A stretch of 34,640 bases of DNA from Candidatus Heimdallarchaeota archaeon (GTDB lineage: Archaea; Asgardarchaeota; Heimdallarchaeia; Heimdallarchaeales; Kariarchaeaceae): NCBI GenBank assembly GCA_015523565.1, contig WAKA01000061.1:1-34640 (forward strand), in the 5' to 3' direction. Of this stretch, positions 10,453 through 20,079 are shown in pieces; the first letter of the stretch is position 1, and each line of letters starts with the position of its first letter. The notes below the pieces were generated by a model that ran no database searches, was not told the origin of the DNA, and was given only the letters and a program-made list of their open reading frames with translations. The translations under genes and the position numbers were made by a program.

Positions 10453-11457
10453 ATTACAGCACGTAATAAGAATGCACCCCATAGAAGTAGTTTAGGATAT
10501 AGAAGATCTCGAGCAAGCAGTCACAAACCAAAAGTTCGGGGTTGGCCAGATTATGAAGGAGATCCCAAAATTTTGGCATTTCCAGGATTTAAGGCAGGAA
10601 TGACCAGAATTATTTACAAGGAGGACTCTCCAAAATCTCATGTTGCCAACATCGATAGAATTGCGGCAGTGACTGTAATTGAAACACCTCCAGTCATCCT
10701 TATGGGAATGAGAACCTATAAACAAACACCATATGGGTTGAAGATTTTGGCAGAAGCAAAATTACAAAGCCCATCCAAGCACATTAGACGCATTAAGGTC
10801 AAATTCCCAGATGAGGAGAAGTATAAAGAACAACTGGAGAATGTTGAGAAAACAGCAGACCAAGCCGTGCAGTTGAGAGCGATTGTTCACACCCAACCAG
10901 ATTTGACTGGAATTGGAACAAAGAAGCCCAGCATCTTTGAAATAAGAGTTGGTGCCAAATCAGTTTCTGAAGGAATTAATTGGCTTAAGGAAAAGATGGG
11001 AAAAGAGCTTCAAATTGAGGACTTTACAAAACCAGGACAATATGTCGATGTGATAGGCATTACAAAAGGTAAAGGCTTCCAAGGACCAGTTAAAAGGCAT
11101 GGCATTACCCTGTTACAACACAAATCCAAGCACACAAAAAGAGGAGTTGGATCAATTGCACCATGGACACCAGCAAGAGTCCAATGGGTATTACCTAGAT
11201 ATGGGCAATTAGGGTATTTCAGGAGAACAGAATACAACAAGAGAGTCATGATGGTAGGAACCAATCCAGATGAGATCAATCCGAAAGGGGATTTTGTCAA
11301 ATATGGAAAGGTCAAGAACAGATACGTTGTGTTGAAAGGTTCTGTACCAGGACCGAAAAAACGCATGGTCATGTTAAGAGATGGTATGAGAAATCAAAAC
11401 AAACTTATCAAGGAGCCACGGATCACATACGTATCCCTTGAATCACAAATGAGGTAA
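10453..11457 (+). CDS. rpl3: ribosomal protein uL3 (L3), apparent ATT start
   Basis: Large-subunit protein next to the peptidyl-transferase centre, 334 residues if translation begins at ATT 10453. The N-terminal region ARNKNAPHRSS...KVRGWP is the expected archaeal uL3 extension, and FPGFKAGMTRI is the classic first strand. The central motif is VDVIGITKGKGFQGPVKR. An in-frame TGA lies at 10444-10446, and between it and TTG 10573 there is no ATG, GTG or TTG. TTG 10573 would delete about 40 conserved residues. AGGTGA at 10441-10446 is 6 nt before the ATT. So either a rare ATT initiator is used or the draft carries a base error there. First gene of a uL3-uL4-uL23-uL2 operon. Confidence 0.9.
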   Translation: MTARNKNAPHRSSLGYRRSRASSHKPKVRGWPDYEGDPKILAFPGFKAGMTRIIYKEDSPKSHVANIDRIAAVTVIETPPVILMGMRTYKQTPYGLKILAEAKLQSPSKHIRRIKVKFPDEEKYKEQLENVEKTADQAVQLRAIVHTQPDLTGIGTKKPSIFEIRVGAKSVSEGINWLKEKMGKELQIEDFTKPGQYVDVIGITKGKGFQGPVKRHGITLLQHKSKHTKRGVGSIAPWTPARVQWVLPRYGQLGYFRRTEYNKRVMMVGTNPDEINPKGDFVKYGKVKNRYVVLKGSVPGPKKRMVMLRDGMRNQNKLIKEPRITYVSLESQMR

Positions 11458-11471
11458 GTTGGAGGTGAAAA

Positions 11472-12248
11472 ATGATGATTAGCGTATTAAATGTAAAGGG
11501 AAACAAAACCAAAAGAAAAATAGAGTTGCCACCTGTGTTCAATACAGATTACCGCCCTGATGTGATCCGACGTGCAGTACTTAGTGAACAAAGTAAGCAA
11601 AAACAACCACAGGGACGTTATCCACTTGCCGGAAGAATTGTTGCGGCATCATCCTTGGGTCCAGGAAGAGGAGCATCCAAGATTCCACGAACACATGGAA
11701 GTGGAACACCTTCTGCTGGAAGAGGGGCATTTGTTCACAGTGCGGTTGGAGGAAAAATGCTCTTTCCACCCACTCCCGAAAAAAAGATTGTAGAAAAGAT
11801 CAATAAAAAAGAGCATAAGCTTGCTTTAAAATCTGCAATTGCGGCAACAAAAGAAAGGAACTTTGTTGAGCAGAGAGGTCATAGAGTCAGTGAAAAAGTC
11901 CAATTCCCCATCATCATAGAGGATAAATTTACAGATGTTCAAAAAACAGCAGAAGTAAAAACTGTCCTTGAAAACCTTGGATTGGGAATGGATCTTGAAA
12001 GATGCAATGTCCGTAAAATCAGGGCAGGAAAAGGAAAAAGAAGAGGGCGAAAATACCGGAAAAAGGTAGGGCCCCTTATTGTCGTTGTTGAAGACTGTCC
12101 ACTTTTGAAGGCAGCAAAGAATATCCCTGGTGTGGAAGTAGTTGAACTTCGACATATGAAGGTTGAAAACTTGGCACCAGGAGGAGATCCAGCAAGGCTG
12201 ACCGTTTGGACAGAAAAGGCCATTGCCCAATTGAAGGATATGGAGTGA
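11472..12248 (+). CDS. rpl4: ribosomal protein uL4 (L4)
   Basis: Exit-tunnel protein of the large subunit, 258 residues, the usual archaeal length. The tunnel-facing loop region is clear: LGPGRGASKIPRTHGSG...GRGAFVHSAVGG, followed by ALKSAIAAT. RRGRKYRKKVGPLIVVVED is the archaeal/eukaryotic C-terminal segment. Strong GGAGGTGA (11461-11468) stands before ATG 11472. It sits 14 nt downstream of uL3. Confidence 0.96.
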   Translation: MMISVLNVKGNKTKRKIELPPVFNTDYRPDVIRRAVLSEQSKQKQPQGRYPLAGRIVAASSLGPGRGASKIPRTHGSGTPSAGRGAFVHSAVGGKMLFPPTPEKKIVEKINKKEHKLALKSAIAATKERNFVEQRGHRVSEKVQFPIIIEDKFTDVQKTAEVKTVLENLGLGMDLERCNVRKIRAGKGKRRGRKYRKKVGPLIVVVEDCPLLKAAKNIPGVEVVELRHMKVENLAPGGDPARLTVWTEKAIAQLKDME

Positions 12249-12253
12249 TAGAA

Positions 12254-12514
12254 ATGGAAAACCATGAAATAATAATCAGACCCGTCTTCTCTGAATCAAT
12301 TTTCGACTTGATTTACAAGGAGAACAAGATACTCTTTGAAGTCAACAAGAATGCAAATAAATTCCAGATAAAACGGGCGGTACAAGAATTATACAATGTC
12401 AAGGTTGTAAAGGTGAACACAATGATTACACCACGGGGAACCAAAAAAGCCATAGTTAAATTGGCTAAGGAATACCCTGCTGATGACTTGGCATCTGAGC
12501 TAAATCTATTCTAA
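12254..12514 (+). CDS. rpl23: ribosomal protein uL23 (L23)
   Basis: An 86-residue protein at the tunnel exit and docking site for SRP and other factors. Recognisable parts are the N-terminal IIIRPVFSESI, then ILFEVNKNANKFQIKRAVQELYNVKVVKVNT and the C-terminal GTKKAIVKLA. ATG 12254 is 5 nt after the uL4 stop and has GGAG within the uL4 end. The length matches archaeal uL23 (about 80-86). Confidence 0.96.
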   Translation: MENHEIIIRPVFSESIFDLIYKENKILFEVNKNANKFQIKRAVQELYNVKVVKVNTMITPRGTKKAIVKLAKEYPADDLASELNLF

Positions 12515-12526
12515 TGAGGTGAAAAA

Positions 12527-13270
12527 ATGGGTAAAAAAATTCTTGTTCAAAGGCGTGGCCGTGGTGGACCTGTTTTCAGGGCAGCAGGGCACAAACGAAT
12601 TGAACCAATCAAGTACAGGAAATTCTCTAGGGAAGAATTGTCATCAAAATTCACAGCTAGAGTTGTTTCTCTTCACCATGAACCAGGAAGAGGTGCACCC
12701 CTTGCAAAAATCCTTTTTTATGATGGTCAGTATAAATATGTCCTTCCTGCTGAAGGGCTTGCAGTTGGGGACACCATTGAATATGGAGCAACAGCAGAAA
12801 TTGCCCCAGGAAATGTTCTTCCTTTGAAATTCATGCCAGTCAGAACCCCAATTTTCAACATAGAACTGCGTGCAGGCGATGGAGGAAAATTGGTGAGGTC
12901 TGCTGGAGCAACCGCCACAGTTGATTCAATTACAGATAAATGGGTTTATGTCAAACTCCCCTCAGGGCGCATTAAAAAGTTCCCACCAGAGGCAAGAGCC
13001 ACAGTAGGCGTAGTTGCAGGGGGCGGCATCACTAAGAAACCCTTGATGAAGGCAGGCAATAAATACCATAAACTGAGGGCAAAGGGTCATAAATACCCAA
13101 GAGTAAGAGGCACTGCAATGAACCCAGTGAAACACCCACATGGTGGTGGTGCACACCAGTCCCCACCAAGATCAACCACCGTTTCACGTAATGCCCCACC
13201 AGGCAGAAAAGTGGGTCTTATTGCGGCCAGACGTACAGGTATTAAACGTGGTCGTCAAGCAAAGATGTAA
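12527..13270 (+). CDS. rpl2: ribosomal protein uL2 (L2)
   Basis: A 247-residue large-subunit protein needed for subunit joining and peptidyl transfer. It begins GKKILVQRRGRGGPVFRA as in archaeal uL2. The highly conserved C-terminal signature RGTAMNPVKHPHGGGAHQSP includes the functionally important His. GAGGTGA (12516-12522) precedes ATG 12527. It is the last gene of the short operon. The usual next genes (uS19, uL22, uS3) are absent and a convergent gene follows after 2 nt. Confidence 0.97.
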   Translation: MGKKILVQRRGRGGPVFRAAGHKRIEPIKYRKFSREELSSKFTARVVSLHHEPGRGAPLAKILFYDGQYKYVLPAEGLAVGDTIEYGATAEIAPGNVLPLKFMPVRTPIFNIELRAGDGGKLVRSAGATATVDSITDKWVYVKLPSGRIKKFPPEARATVGVVAGGGITKKPLMKAGNKYHKLRAKGHKYPRVRGTAMNPVKHPHGGGAHQSPPRSTTVSRNAPPGRKVGLIAARRTGIKRGRQAKM

Positions 13271-13272
13271 AA

Positions 13273-14088
13273 TCAATAAAAAACATTTGCAGATTTATCA
13301 AATTTAATTTTTTTTCGAAATTCAGGAAGAATAGGATTATCTTCTAAGTTTAGCCATTTTAAATTGGGAAATAGATCAGTCATGTTAGATGGAAGTTCCG
13401 TCAGTTCATTTCCTGACAAATCAAGCCTCTTTAAGCTAATCAGTTCTTTTCCAATGTTGATTGAGAATATGTTGTTCCCAGAAAGATTTAACTCAGTGAC
13501 AGTTAGAGGTAAATCATTGAAATCAAAGTGAGTAATCCTATTGTCACGAAGATTTAAGGTCTCAATCTCTACACCCTGAAAAAATCCATGAGGGATTTCC
13601 TGAATGCTATTGCTTGAAAGATCCAAAATTTTGAGGTCTAAAGTTGAAATAAGGTTGTGCCTTAATGAAACAAGGGAATTGCGATGGATGTCAAGCACCA
13701 ATAAATTTCGGAGGTGGTTAAAAGTGCCTTCCTCGATATCGTGAATTAGATTCTCATTGAGATAAAGACGTTCAAGATTCCTGTTGTTCCAAAACAGATT
13801 TTTTGGAATGTATTCAAGCCTATTTTTGGAAAGGTCTAATTCACGGAGGTTTGGCATTTTTGAAAAAAAGTTTTCTGGAATGGATTGCAGGTCATTTAAT
13901 GCCAAATGAAGTTTTTCAAGGTAGGGAAGTCTTAATTTGAGGGGTTGTGGAATTTCAACCATTCGCATTTCAGAAAGATAAAGCTCAACTATTCTTGTTT
14001 TACCTTGTATCTTTCTGGTCACTAATTGGTTCCTCGATATGCCTAATTTTTTATGCAATTCCTGGATTTGCGCGGTATCATCCATCAT
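13273..14088 (-). CDS. leucine-rich-repeat protein
   Basis: About 271 residues made almost entirely of LRRs of the type LxxLxLxxNxLxxIPxxxF. I can count about nine repeats from residue 30 on, for example LEKLHLALNDLQSIPENFF, LRELDLSKNRLEYIPKNLF and LKRLDLSGNELTELP, ending in a cap-like LKWLNLEDNPILPEF. There is no signal peptide or membrane helix if ATG 14088 is the start. ATG 14154, which overlaps the upstream gene, is possible and would add a more hydrophobic N-terminus. It is probably a cytoplasmic protein-protein interaction module with no known partner. Small LRR proteins of this sort are frequent in Asgard archaea (general knowledge). Confidence 0.85.
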   Translation of the reverse strand: MMDDTAQIQELHKKLGISRNQLVTRKIQGKTRIVELYLSEMRMVEIPQPLKLRLPYLEKLHLALNDLQSIPENFFSKMPNLRELDLSKNRLEYIPKNLFWNNRNLERLYLNENLIHDIEEGTFNHLRNLLVLDIHRNSLVSLRHNLISTLDLKILDLSSNSIQEIPHGFFQGVEIETLNLRDNRITHFDFNDLPLTVTELNLSGNNIFSINIGKELISLKRLDLSGNELTELPSNMTDLFPNLKWLNLEDNPILPEFRKKIKFDKSANVFY

Positions 14089-14137
14089 AGAATAAGTCGA
14101 GTACGTCACTAAAAAAGACGATGTTAAATCCAAAATT

Positions 14138-14476
14138 TCAATAAAATAACGCATCAAGTAAATCTCTTATAGAATTTCTTATTGCCTTGTTTGGTTCATG
14201 AATGTAAATCTGTTTGAGCTCGGCAATTTGTAATTTATGCGTTGGATTTATCCATTCACTGAGTTTCTCAATTGCATCCAATTTTTGTCCAATGGATTTT
14301 GACGTGATCAAAACTTGGATTAGATCCTCAACTAGAAATATCTGTAATAGATCTGCAAGTTCCATTTCCTCTCTGATTGCCTTAGATTTTTGTGCGGAAT
14401 TGGGCTGGTTCATGAGTGCAAGATTGAATTCATGGTCATTCATGTATTGGAACCTTGCTTCCAGATCGACTACCAT
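14138..14476 (-). CDS. hypothetical small helical protein (HEAT-like)
   Basis: About 112 residues starting at ATG 14476; ATG 14497 is an alternative that adds seven hydrophobic residues. The second half reads as two helical hairpins (LADLLQIFLVEDLIQVLI, then QKLDAIEKLSEWI and KAIRNSIRDLLDALF), which resembles HEAT/armadillo repeats. I recognise no specific family. It lies just upstream of the LRR gene on the same strand and is probably co-transcribed, so the two may act together. Confidence 0.5.
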   Translation of the reverse strand: MVVDLEARFQYMNDHEFNLALMNQPNSAQKSKAIREEMELADLLQIFLVEDLIQVLITSKSIGQKLDAIEKLSEWINPTHKLQIAELKQIYIHEPNKAIRNSIRDLLDALFY

Positions 14477-19013: not shown

Positions 19014-19023
19014 CTTAAATACC
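19014..19023 (+). promoter_or_regulatory. TATA box of the 5S rRNA gene
   Basis: CTTAAATACC is a strong archaeal TATA-like element. With the usual spacing it places the transcript start near 19044, about 40 nt before the mature 5S region. The identical decamer recurs at 28346-28355. Confidence 0.6.
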
Positions 19024-19048
19024 ACTCTGTTTTAACTAAGTATGTAAC

Positions 19049-19086
19049 ATCAACCACGGTTGATATGCGGAGGGTTCTCCTACCAG
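19049..19086 (+). other. 5S rRNA precursor leader, possibly the decayed 5' half of an ancestral 5S copy
   Basis: The leader can form two small hairpins: 19049-19054 with 19059-19064 (6 perfect pairs, loop CACG) and 19069-19072 with 19077-19080 (loop GGTT). The segment 19056-19073 also lines up with the true 5' half further on: ACGGTTGATATGCGGAGG here against ACGGTCATAGAGCCGGTG at 19166-19183. But the helix III/loop C part with CCGAAC is missing. This is what a tandem duplication followed by loss of the outer halves would leave. An alternative pairing of 19065-19068 and 19072-19074 with 19096-19098 and 19100-19103 would compete with mature helix II. Confidence 0.45.
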
Positions 19087-19214
19087 AAAGTTAAGCCCAG
19101 CATCGGACGACCCATGTACTGATTTCCGCGAGGGATCGGGAAAGGCGTCACGCTGTATTACGATTACGGTCATAGAGCCGGTGTGCACCCAGAAACATTC
19201 CGAACCTGGATAAG
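19087..19214 (+). rRNA. rrf: 5S ribosomal RNA, circularly permuted gene order
   Basis: All parts of an archaeal 5S rRNA are present, in rotated order. First comes the normal 3' half: loop B AAGTTAAGCCC (19088-19098), helix II 3' strand (19101-19106), helix IV (19107-19112 with 19144-19148, A19110 bulged), loop E GTACTG (19116-19121) facing CGGGAA (19137-19142), and helix V with loop D GCGA (19128-19131). Then helix I: CTGTA (19153-19157) pairs with TACGG (19165-19169) and is capped by a 7-nt loop where the normal 3' and 5' ends would be. Then the normal 5' half: loop A TCATAG, helix II 5' strand CCGGTG (19178-19183), and helix III CCAG/CTGG enclosing the 13-nt loop C with CATTCCGAAC (19196-19205). 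The new ends fall in loop B. Exact mature ends are estimates. No ordinary 5S fold is possible at this locus. Confidence 0.82.
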
Positions 19215-19217
19215 AAA

Positions 19218-19237
19218 GCAACTGTTGCATCTTTTTT
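19218..19237 (+). terminator. terminator of the 5S rRNA transcript
   Basis: A short stem (GCAA/TTGC, loop CTG, 19218-19228) is followed by six T residues (19232-19237), directly after the end of the permuted 5S. T-tracts are the main archaeal termination signal; the weak stem may be incidental. Confidence 0.5.
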
Positions 19238-19240
19238 CGG

Positions 19241-19247
19241 TTTATAT
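19241..19247 (+). promoter_or_regulatory. TATA box of the cpGTPase gene
   Basis: TTTATAT predicts a start near 19270, shortly before ATG 19273/19285, so the GTPase has its own promoter immediately after the 5S terminator and a very short leader. Confidence 0.45.
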
Positions 19248-19284
19248 GAAAATACTTCTAAAATACAAAAACATGTTTTTTTTG

Positions 19285-20079
19285 ATGTCAATGAATAAAT
19301 TTTGGGGGATTGTCTACAGCATGGTCGACAGGTCTGATGTCGTGTTGGAAGTTGTAGACGCAAGATTCCCCTCAATATGCAGAAGTACACGATTAGAAGA
19401 GTACGTCAATTCTATAGAGGATTGCAATCTAGTCATTGGTTTAAATAAAACAGACCTAATTCCAAAATCCCTACTCGATAGGTGGCTGGGTTGGTTTGAA
19501 GAACGAGGCTACGTTGCAACTGGGTTTTCCGCATCCAAACGTTTGGGCACGTCTCGAATTCGGAGGGTGCTACTTCGTGCATCCAAACGAAAGACAGCTG
19601 TTGTAGCTGTTGTAGGGTTCCCAAACACAGGAAAAAGCTCATTGATAAATACACTTAGAGGAAAAGCGGCCGCAGGTGTTGCACCGATTCCAGGCAAAAC
19701 AAGAGGAGAGCAAAAGATAAGGGTAAGCAATAGCCTTTTCATGTTTGACACGCCAGGAATTATCCCAGCCCAATTACCTGAGAAACACAGAATTTTATTG
19801 GGTCTCGACGCCATTACAAAAATCAAGGATCCAGAACATGCCGCCTTAATACTTTATGCACAAGCGGAAGAATTGAATCCAGGTGCAGTTGCAGAACATT
19901 ATGGAATTGAGAATGATGCACAAGATTTTTTGGCAAATCTCGCATATGCAAGAAACAAGATAGTGAAAGGGAATATGCCTGACGAAAGGGCCGCCGCAAT
20001 TATTTTTCTTTCAGATCATATCAGAGGACTTCTTCCAATTTACGAGAACCCTGCAAGACCACTACGCATGAGCCGTTAG
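19285..20079 (+). CDS. circularly permuted GTPase, RbgA/YlqF-Nog2-Lsg1 type ribosome assembly factor
   Basis: About 264 residues. The G motifs are in permuted order: G4 NKTD at about 54-57, G5 FSAS at about 81, then G1 GFPNTGKSS at about 111-119, G2 PGKTRG, and G3 DTPG. The N-terminal VLEVVDARFP segment is also typical. Bacterial RbgA and eukaryotic Nog2/Nug1/Lsg1 of this family act in late large-subunit assembly; Nog2 release is tied to 5S RNP rotation in yeast (established knowledge). ATG 19285 suits the TATA box at 19241 and the family N-terminus (MSMNKFWGIVYSMVDRSDVV). Earlier ATGs at 19183 and 19246 lie within or too close to the 5S unit. Confidence 0.88.
   Translation: MSMNKFWGIVYSMVDRSDVVLEVVDARFPSICRSTRLEEYVNSIEDCNLVIGLNKTDLIPKSLLDRWLGWFEERGYVATGFSASKRLGTSRIRRVLLRASKRKTAVVAVVGFPNTGKSSLINTLRGKAAAGVAPIPGKTRGEQKIRVSNSLFMFDTPGIIPAQLPEKHRILLGLDAITKIKDPEHAALILYAQAEELNPGAVAEHYGIENDAQDFLANLAYARNKIVKGNMPDERAAAIIFLSDHIRGLLPIYENPARPLRMSR

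What the first reader, a model, noticed from the sequence alone, without database searches (positions are those of the whole stretch)
19087..19214. Circularly permuted 5S rRNA gene in an archaeon
Seen directly: the conserved 3' half of 5S (AAGTTAAGCCC, GTACTG, CGCGAG, CGGGAA) lies upstream of the conserved 5' half (CGGTCATAG, CATTCCGAAC). Joining the two normal ends gives a clean helix I, CTGTA/TACGG, closed by a 7-nt loop. Helix II (CATCGG/CCGGTG) and helix III (CCAG/CTGG around the 13-nt loop C) close only in this order. Length about 128 nt equals a normal 5S plus the loop. Established: permuted 5S genes are known in some algal/stramenopile mitochondria (mtPerm-5S); I know of none in archaeal chromosomes, but could not search. 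Inference: the ribosome would carry a 5S whose ends lie in loop B rather than at helix I.
Basis: partly seen in the sequence, partly recalled or inferred. Interest (0 to 1): 0.92.

Follow-up and report, generated by a model that had tools for sequence, protein, structure and literature searches.

The report
Circularly permuted 5S rRNA of Asgards
In most Asgard archaea, the microbes closest to our own cells, the gene for a universal ribosome part (5S rRNA) is written with its two halves swapped, and flanking sequence signals suggest the cell splices the RNA into a closed circle that restores the normal molecule.

Summary
Window 19087-19211 encodes a complete 5S rRNA with its halves swapped: a model of the permuted order matches it full length (98.2 bits), while a model of the normal order matches only as two half-hits. 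The host is a Heimdallarchaeia-type Asgard archaeon with no ordinary 5S detected. The arrangement is widespread: about 140 of 228 Asgard genomes carry permuted 5S genes, including single-contig genomes whose only detectable 5S is permuted. Ordinary 5S genes occur in five other families; the four genomes showing both carry the ordinary copy on other, bacterial- or plastid-like contigs.

Leader and trailer form a bulge-helix-bulge (BHB), the substrate of the archaeal tRNA-splicing endonuclease: 39 of 80 loci show the strict geometry against 1.0 expected. Cutting by the known rule and ligating restores canonical loop B; in genes broken elsewhere, and across loop-C inserts, it also restores the canonical sequence. 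The likely product is a closed circular 5S rRNA of about 123 nt. No RNA data were available, and the window copy's outer BHB helix is imperfect. The held literature does not describe this; one paper reports failing to find Heimdallarchaeum 5S.

The parts
19014..19023 (+). TATA-like promoter element CTTAAATACC
   Evidence: Sequence; YTTAWAW motifs upstream of permuted 5S genes in 44 of 74 loci against 15.2 in shuffles. Use as a promoter is inferred.
19044..19088 (+). Leader (start inferred from TATA spacing), with hairpins ATCAACCACGGTTGAT 19049-19064 and GGAGGGTTCTCC 19069-19080
   Evidence: Sequence; transcription start not measured.
19083..19086 (+). CCAG: 5' strand of the BHB central helix, pairs with CTGG 19206-19209
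   Evidence: Geometry conserved and covarying in relatives.
19087..19089 (+). AAA: 5' bulge of the BHB; predicted cut after 19088
   Evidence: BHB rule applied.
19089..19211 (+). Predicted excised 5S rRNA, 123 nt, junction CTGGAT|AGTTAAGCCC when circularised
   Evidence: R1 match 19086-19211, 98.2 bits; predicted junction.
19101..19106 (+). Helix II, 3' strand CATCGG (pairs with 19178-19183)
   Evidence: Covariation of helix II, 7 of 8 pairs with changes on both sides.
19152..19170 (+). Helix I hairpin GCTGTA-TTACGAT-TACGGT, joining the positions of the normal 5S ends
   Evidence: 6 of 7 pairs with changes on both sides across 79 distinct genes; loop census, TTCG commonest.
19178..19183 (+). 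Helix II, 5' strand CCGGTG
19189..19209 (+). Helix III CCAG/CTGG with 13-nt loop C AAACATTCCGAAC
   Evidence: 98.7% of cells paired, all 4 pairs with changes on both sides.
19206..19209 (+). CTGG: helix III 3' strand, shared with the BHB central helix as alternative pairing
19210..19212 (+). ATA: 3' bulge of the BHB; predicted cut after 19211
   Evidence: BHB rule; clean in same-genus G001 (ATA then an outer helix), outer helix imperfect in the window copy.
19212..19237 (+). Trailer with GCAACTGTTGC 19218-19228 and T6 run 19232-19237, probable terminator
   Evidence: Sequence; T runs within 70 nt downstream in 50 of 74 loci against 23.6 in shuffles.

Best explanation
Window 19014-19237 is a stand-alone transcription unit for the only 5S rRNA detected in this genome. 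The gene is circularly permuted: it begins in the 3' strand of loop B, runs through helices II, V, IV and I, crosses the place of the normal ends through a short hairpin loop, and continues through helices II and III. Leader and trailer pair with each other and with the 3' strand of helix III into a bulge-helix-bulge. The tRNA-splicing endonuclease EndA cuts after the second nucleotide of each 3-nt bulge, and RtcB joins the ends of the excised 5S into a circle of about 123 nt. Ligation rebuilds canonical loop B, so the ribosome receives a structurally normal 5S that is covalently closed. Shown computationally: the permutation, its conservation and covariation, the BHB geometry in relatives, and junctions that restore the canonical sequence. 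Inferred: transcription, cleavage, ligation, and that the circle is the final form in the ribosome.
For: Permutation: R1/R2 reciprocal test; 56 of 59 genomes of the class and about 140 of 228 Asgard genomes; covariation 0.842 against 0.243 shuffled. BHB: strict geometry in 39 of 80 unique loci against a mean of 1.0 with leaders and trailers re-paired; the central helix covaries (CCGG/CCGG, CGTG/CACG, CCAG/CTGG, CGAG/CTCG, CAAG/CTTG, CCGA/TCGG) and three registers all give the canonical junction. Genes broken in loop C or in the 5' strand of loop B, and loop-C inserts, also give canonical sequence under the same rule. Predicted products are 115-129 nt. The genome encodes two EndA-family ORFs and RtcB. 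Precedent: permuted SRP RNA of Thermoproteus is circularised this way (PMC4731332).
Against: No RNA evidence. The window copy's own outer BHB helix is imperfect: a 1-nt-bulge register with two C-A mismatches is the best found. The strict test fails in about half of the loci (some have 3 of 4 central pairs; Heimdallarchaeum-like genes have an extra leader hairpin and one extra A at the junction). A regular inner BHB helix is lacking, so the motif is of the relaxed kind.
Confidence: 0.85

Rival explanations
1. A permuted but linear 5S: leader and trailer are trimmed, or kept as an extra terminal helix, and the ribosome carries a 5S with free ends in loop B.
For: The terminal helix alone would make a stable end structure; mitochondrial permuted 5S exist (cited in PMC11528492). 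The window copy's outer BHB helix is imperfect.
Against: It explains neither the exact 4-bp/3-nt geometry, nor the four leader bases that copy the pairing of helix III, nor why cutting by the EndA rule restores canonical sequence at three different break sites and at loop-C inserts.
Confidence: 0.1
2. The circle is only an intermediate: after BHB ligation the helix I hairpin is cut, and the mature 5S is linear with its ends at the normal place, as permuted tRNAs are opened again.
For: Known for permuted tRNA genes (general knowledge; PMC3978253 listed). Helix I loops vary in sequence and length, and G106 has a 36-nt loop.
Against: The commonest loop is the compact TTCG tetraloop (33 of about 79 distinct genes), with no spacer to remove, unlike permuted tRNA genes. 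An engineered 5S with its ends joined by 4 nt works in E. coli (PMC7283268).
Confidence: 0.2
3. Assembly artefact, or a decayed 5S copy beside a functional ordinary gene that was missed.
For: The genome is a 233-contig MAG, 90% complete.
Against: Same order in independent assemblies across the class and most of the phylum, including single-contig genomes whose only RF00001 matches are the permuted genes themselves. Strong covariation. The four genomes with both forms carry the ordinary copy on other contigs; these look bacterial or plastid-like.
Confidence: 0.02

Closest known systems
Permuted circular SRP RNA of Thermoproteus (Plagens et al. 2015, PMC4731332)
   Same: A universal RNA whose canonical gene seemed missing; permuted gene, leader-trailer BHB cut by the tRNA splicing endonuclease, circular product in which ligation restores a functional loop.
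   Different: Different RNA, and reported for two Thermoproteus species; here it is 5S rRNA and phylum-wide. Their product was shown by RNA-Seq and northern blot; here it is predicted.
mtPerm-5S, permuted mitochondrial 5S rRNA (Valach et al. 2014; Rfam RF02547)
   Same: 5S rRNA gene with joined normal ends and swapped halves.
   Different: Organellar; RF02547 does not match this genome. No BHB or circular product is known to me for it (paper not held).
Circularly permuted tRNA genes with BHB (algae, Thermofilum; PMC3978253, PMC3218864)
   Same: Permuted gene order repaired by BHB splicing into a circle.
   Different: tRNA; the circle is reopened at the tRNA ends (general knowledge).
BHB-dependent circular pre-16S/23S rRNA of archaea, and permuted 23S of Pyrococcus furiosus (PMC7758197, PMC12918454)
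   Same: Same enzymes act on rRNA; circular intermediates or products.
   Different: Genes are in normal order; a 2026 paper states that 16S and 23S, but not 5S, are circularised.
Engineered cp5S in E. coli (Huang et al. 2020, PMC7283268)
   Same: Native 5S ends joined by a 4-nt connector and the RNA opened elsewhere; the ribosomes work.
   Different: Man-made, opened in loop C or D and fused into 23S rRNA.

Membership tests
5S rRNA | Five helices and conserved loops A-E | tested here: met
   R1 full-length match and covariation of all five helices; rotated sequences form a model that finds ordinary 5S genes.
5S rRNA | Gene ends closed by helix I | tested here: not met
   Helix I is an internal hairpin; the gene ends lie in loop B.
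5S rRNA | RNA present in ribosomes | not testable with these tools
   No RNA or ribosome data.
mtPerm-5S (Rfam RF02547) | Match to the family model | tested here: not met
   No match in the genome at E up to 10.
mtPerm-5S (Rfam RF02547) | Permuted order with normal ends joined | tested here: met
BHB-processed permuted RNA genes | 4-bp helix with a 3-nt bulge after each strand, plus outer helix | tested here: met
   39 of 80 loci strict, control mean 1.0; imperfect outer helix in the window copy.
BHB-processed permuted RNA genes | Cut and ligation restore the functional sequence | tested here: met
   Junctions equal canonical loop B or loop C; one extra base in Heimdallarchaeum-like and Kariarchaea genes.
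BHB-processed permuted RNA genes | EndA and RtcB present | tested here: met
   Two EndA-family ORFs (88.7 and 50.6 bits) and RtcB (564 bits) in the own genome.
BHB-processed permuted RNA genes | Ligated junction observed in RNA | not testable with these tools
   No read data.

The most novel reading that the evidence does not exclude
Most Asgard archaea carry a covalently closed circular 5S rRNA in their ribosomes, made by tRNA-splicing enzymes from a circularly permuted gene. The state is old in the phylum (possibly ancestral, with several returns to an ordinary gene), its break point has moved more than once, and some lineages also carry BHB introns inside 5S.
Probability: 0.7. Interest if true: 0.97.

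Novelty: new variant of a known kind. Interest (0 to 1): 0.94.

Why it matters
5S rRNA is universal in cytoplasmic ribosomes and is regarded as a linear molecule closed by helix I. Here most of the archaeal phylum closest to eukaryotes encodes it permuted, and probably uses it as a circle. This explains why 5S genes could not be predicted in complete Heimdallarchaeum genomes (PMC8813620). It would correct genome-quality scores that demand a 5S gene, give a discrete marker for Asgard phylogeny, and extend BHB processing to the last ribosomal RNA said not to undergo it. It is directly testable by junction-spanning reads.

Tried and rejected
Rfam RF00001 and mtPerm-5S on the window and genome: no match. 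Single-strand folding of the transcript: uninformative. A strict BHB with a continuous outer helix in the window copy itself: not found, only an imperfect register. EF-2 for a species tree: abandoned because of paralogues, replaced by ribosomal proteins. That tree is unrooted and partly unresolved: the permuted/linear label needs at least 4 changes (2 forced by well-supported branches), so one old origin with returns and several origins both remain possible. The 36-nt helix I loop of G106, the loop D insert of G121 and the break in G158 were not resolved. An EMBO J 2026 Asgard review with '5S ribosomal RNA' hits has them only in its references.

Full report
OBSERVATION. The order is that of a 5S rRNA whose 3' half precedes its 5' half. 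The normal ends are joined through helix I GCTGTA/TACGGT with a 7-nt loop; helix II is CATCGG/CCGGTG and helix III is CCAG/CTGG around a 13-nt loop C. The standard Rfam 5S model and the mitochondrial permuted model find nothing in the region or genome.

RECIPROCAL TEST. I built a covariance model of permuted genes (R1) and one of such genes rotated back to normal order and joined at the predicted splice junction (R2). R1 matches the window full length at 98.2 bits and ordinary Asgard 5S genes at only 15-36 bits. R2 matches ordinary Asgard 5S genes full length at 61.6-106.5 bits, but the window only as two halves, 19053-19158 and 19163-19281. So the sequence is a 5S rRNA and is permuted. The window was one of ten sequences in R1, so its score there is partly by construction; most of the survey hits were not in the model.

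HOW COMMON. Named relatives place the window in the Heimdallarchaeia/Kariarchaea. Within the class, 56 of 59 genomes have a permuted 5S. Across 228 Asgard genomes, 164 match R1; 24 of these are weak cross-matches in five families with ordinary 5S, which leaves about 140. I inspected roughly 65 loci by eye; the other assignments rest on model score and family. Ordinary 5S above the Rfam cut-off occurs in about 59 genomes of five families, f11, f18, f26, f27 and f28. Four genomes have both (G033, G051, G110, G134); there the ordinary gene lies on another contig and its sequence is bacterial- or plastid-like (my reading of the sequences). Single-contig genomes with only permuted 5S include G015 (3.33 Mb, two copies), G174 (1,418,269 bases), G054 (4.94 Mb), G121 and G122. 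Outside Asgard, 11 archaeal and bacterial genomes gave no match above 37 bits. In the same-genus genome G001 the permuted 5S also lies just upstream of the same GTPase gene.

STRUCTURE. On 79 distinct permuted genes, 90.8% of pair cells are standard pairs, and 26 of 28 pairs show changes on both sides. The covariation score is 0.842 against 0.243 for shuffles and at most 0.122 for slid structures. That alignment was fitted to the structure, which inflates these figures somewhat. Helix I, which in this gene order is an internal hairpin, is compensated in 6 of 7 pairs. Its loop is TTCG in 33 distinct genes and another short loop in most others. TATA-like boxes upstream and T runs downstream are enriched, as expected of stand-alone transcription units.

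ENDS AND MECHANISM. Leader and trailer pair in a helix that ends at the 5S borders. Next to it, four leader bases pair with the 3' strand of helix III, and a 3-nt bulge follows each strand of that 4-bp helix. This is the bulge-helix-bulge (four-nucleotide helix, two 3-nt bulges; PMC7714728) cut by the archaeal splicing endonuclease. The strict arrangement (0 nt on the 5' strand, 3-nt bulge on the 3' strand, outer helix of at least 5 bp) is present in 39 of 80 unique loci, against a mean of 1.0 when leaders and trailers are exchanged between loci. The loci are related, so 39 is not 39 independent events. The four leader bases covary with helix III: CCGG/CCGG, CGTG/CACG, CCAG/CTGG, CGAG/CTCG, CAAG/CTTG, CCGA/TCGG. 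Cutting after the second bulge base and ligating gives GAACCCGGAA|GTTAAGCC, CGAACACGGA|AGTTAAGCC or AACACGGAAG|TTAAGCC: the canonical 5S sequence from three registers of the central helix. Four genes break elsewhere (G099, G122, G124 in loop C; G084 in the 5' strand of loop B). There the same rule gives CCCAGAA|ACATTCCGAAC, CCCGGTC|CCATCCGAAC and TCGGAA|ACACCCG, again canonical. Inserts in loop C of several f19 genes splice to CCCGGTCCCATCCGAA|CCCGG, as in insert-free relatives such as G113. I did not compute a joint probability for these coincidences, but a linear permuted RNA gives no reason for them.

THE WINDOW COPY. It has the central helix (CCAG 19083-19086 / CTGG 19206-19209) and both bulges (AAA, ATA), but its outer helix is imperfect. 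The same-genus genome G001 has it cleanly. The predicted product is 19089-19211, 123 nt, junction CTGGAT|AGTTAAGCCC, one base longer at the junction than the usual form. The genome encodes two EndA-family ORFs, which would fit the heterotetrameric, permissive enzyme type, and one RtcB; the subunit type was not tested.

EVOLUTION. On a tree of uL3, uL4, uL23 and uL2 from 61 Asgard genomes, the permuted/linear label needs at least 4 changes, 2 of them forced by well-supported branches. The tree is unrooted and 20 rows lack three of the four proteins, so direction is not settled. The shared break site and shared BHB favour one old origin with several returns. Tandem permuted copies, as in G063 (L085), would offer a route back, since an ordinary 5S order lies across two copies; this is inference.

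LITERATURE. Ten full-text searches of the held PMC library found no report of permuted or circular 5S rRNA in archaea. Wu et al. 2022 state that 5S genes of Heimdallarchaeum could not be predicted by existing models. A 2026 paper says that archaeal 16S and 23S, but not 5S, are circularised. The nearest mechanism is circular SRP RNA in Thermoproteus; the nearest functional proof is the engineered E. coli strain. Most subscription journals and all preprints were out of reach, so priority cannot be claimed with certainty.

VERDICT. Permuted gene: near certain. BHB circularisation: likely (0.85), untested at the RNA level. Circle as the final ribosomal form: likely (about 0.7).

Noticed in passing
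L158, L159, L163, L169, L162 (genomes G101, G102, G110, G116, G127): Inserts in loop C of permuted 5S genes of family f19 look like small BHB introns: the EndA rule removes them to give the loop C of insert-free relatives.
   Followed up: partly
L089 (G099), L166 and L168 (G122, G124), L087 (G084): Permuted 5S genes with other break points (loop C, or the 5' strand of loop B); predicted BHB junctions are canonical there too.
   Followed up: partly
L085 (G063): Two permuted 5S genes in tandem, 157 nt apart, each with its own terminal helix.
   Followed up: partly
L161 (G106) and L165 (G121): Unresolved inserts in the helix I loop and in loop D of permuted 5S genes.
   Followed up: no
L091 (G134), L056 (G110), L001 (G051), L002 (G033): Ordinary, bacterial- or plastid-like 5S genes on contigs of Asgard bins that also hold a permuted 5S, suggesting contaminant contigs.
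   Followed up: partly
window 10573-13270: Ribosomal protein genes uL3, uL4, uL23 and uL2, followed on the other strand by an ORF that looks like a leucine-rich-repeat protein (13273-14157).
   Followed up: no
window 19183-20079: ORF directly downstream of the 5S (homology from about 19300), a circularly permuted GTPase of the YlqF/RbgA kind by my reading, so possibly a ribosome-assembly factor; the neighbourhood is kept in same-genus G001.
   Followed up: partly
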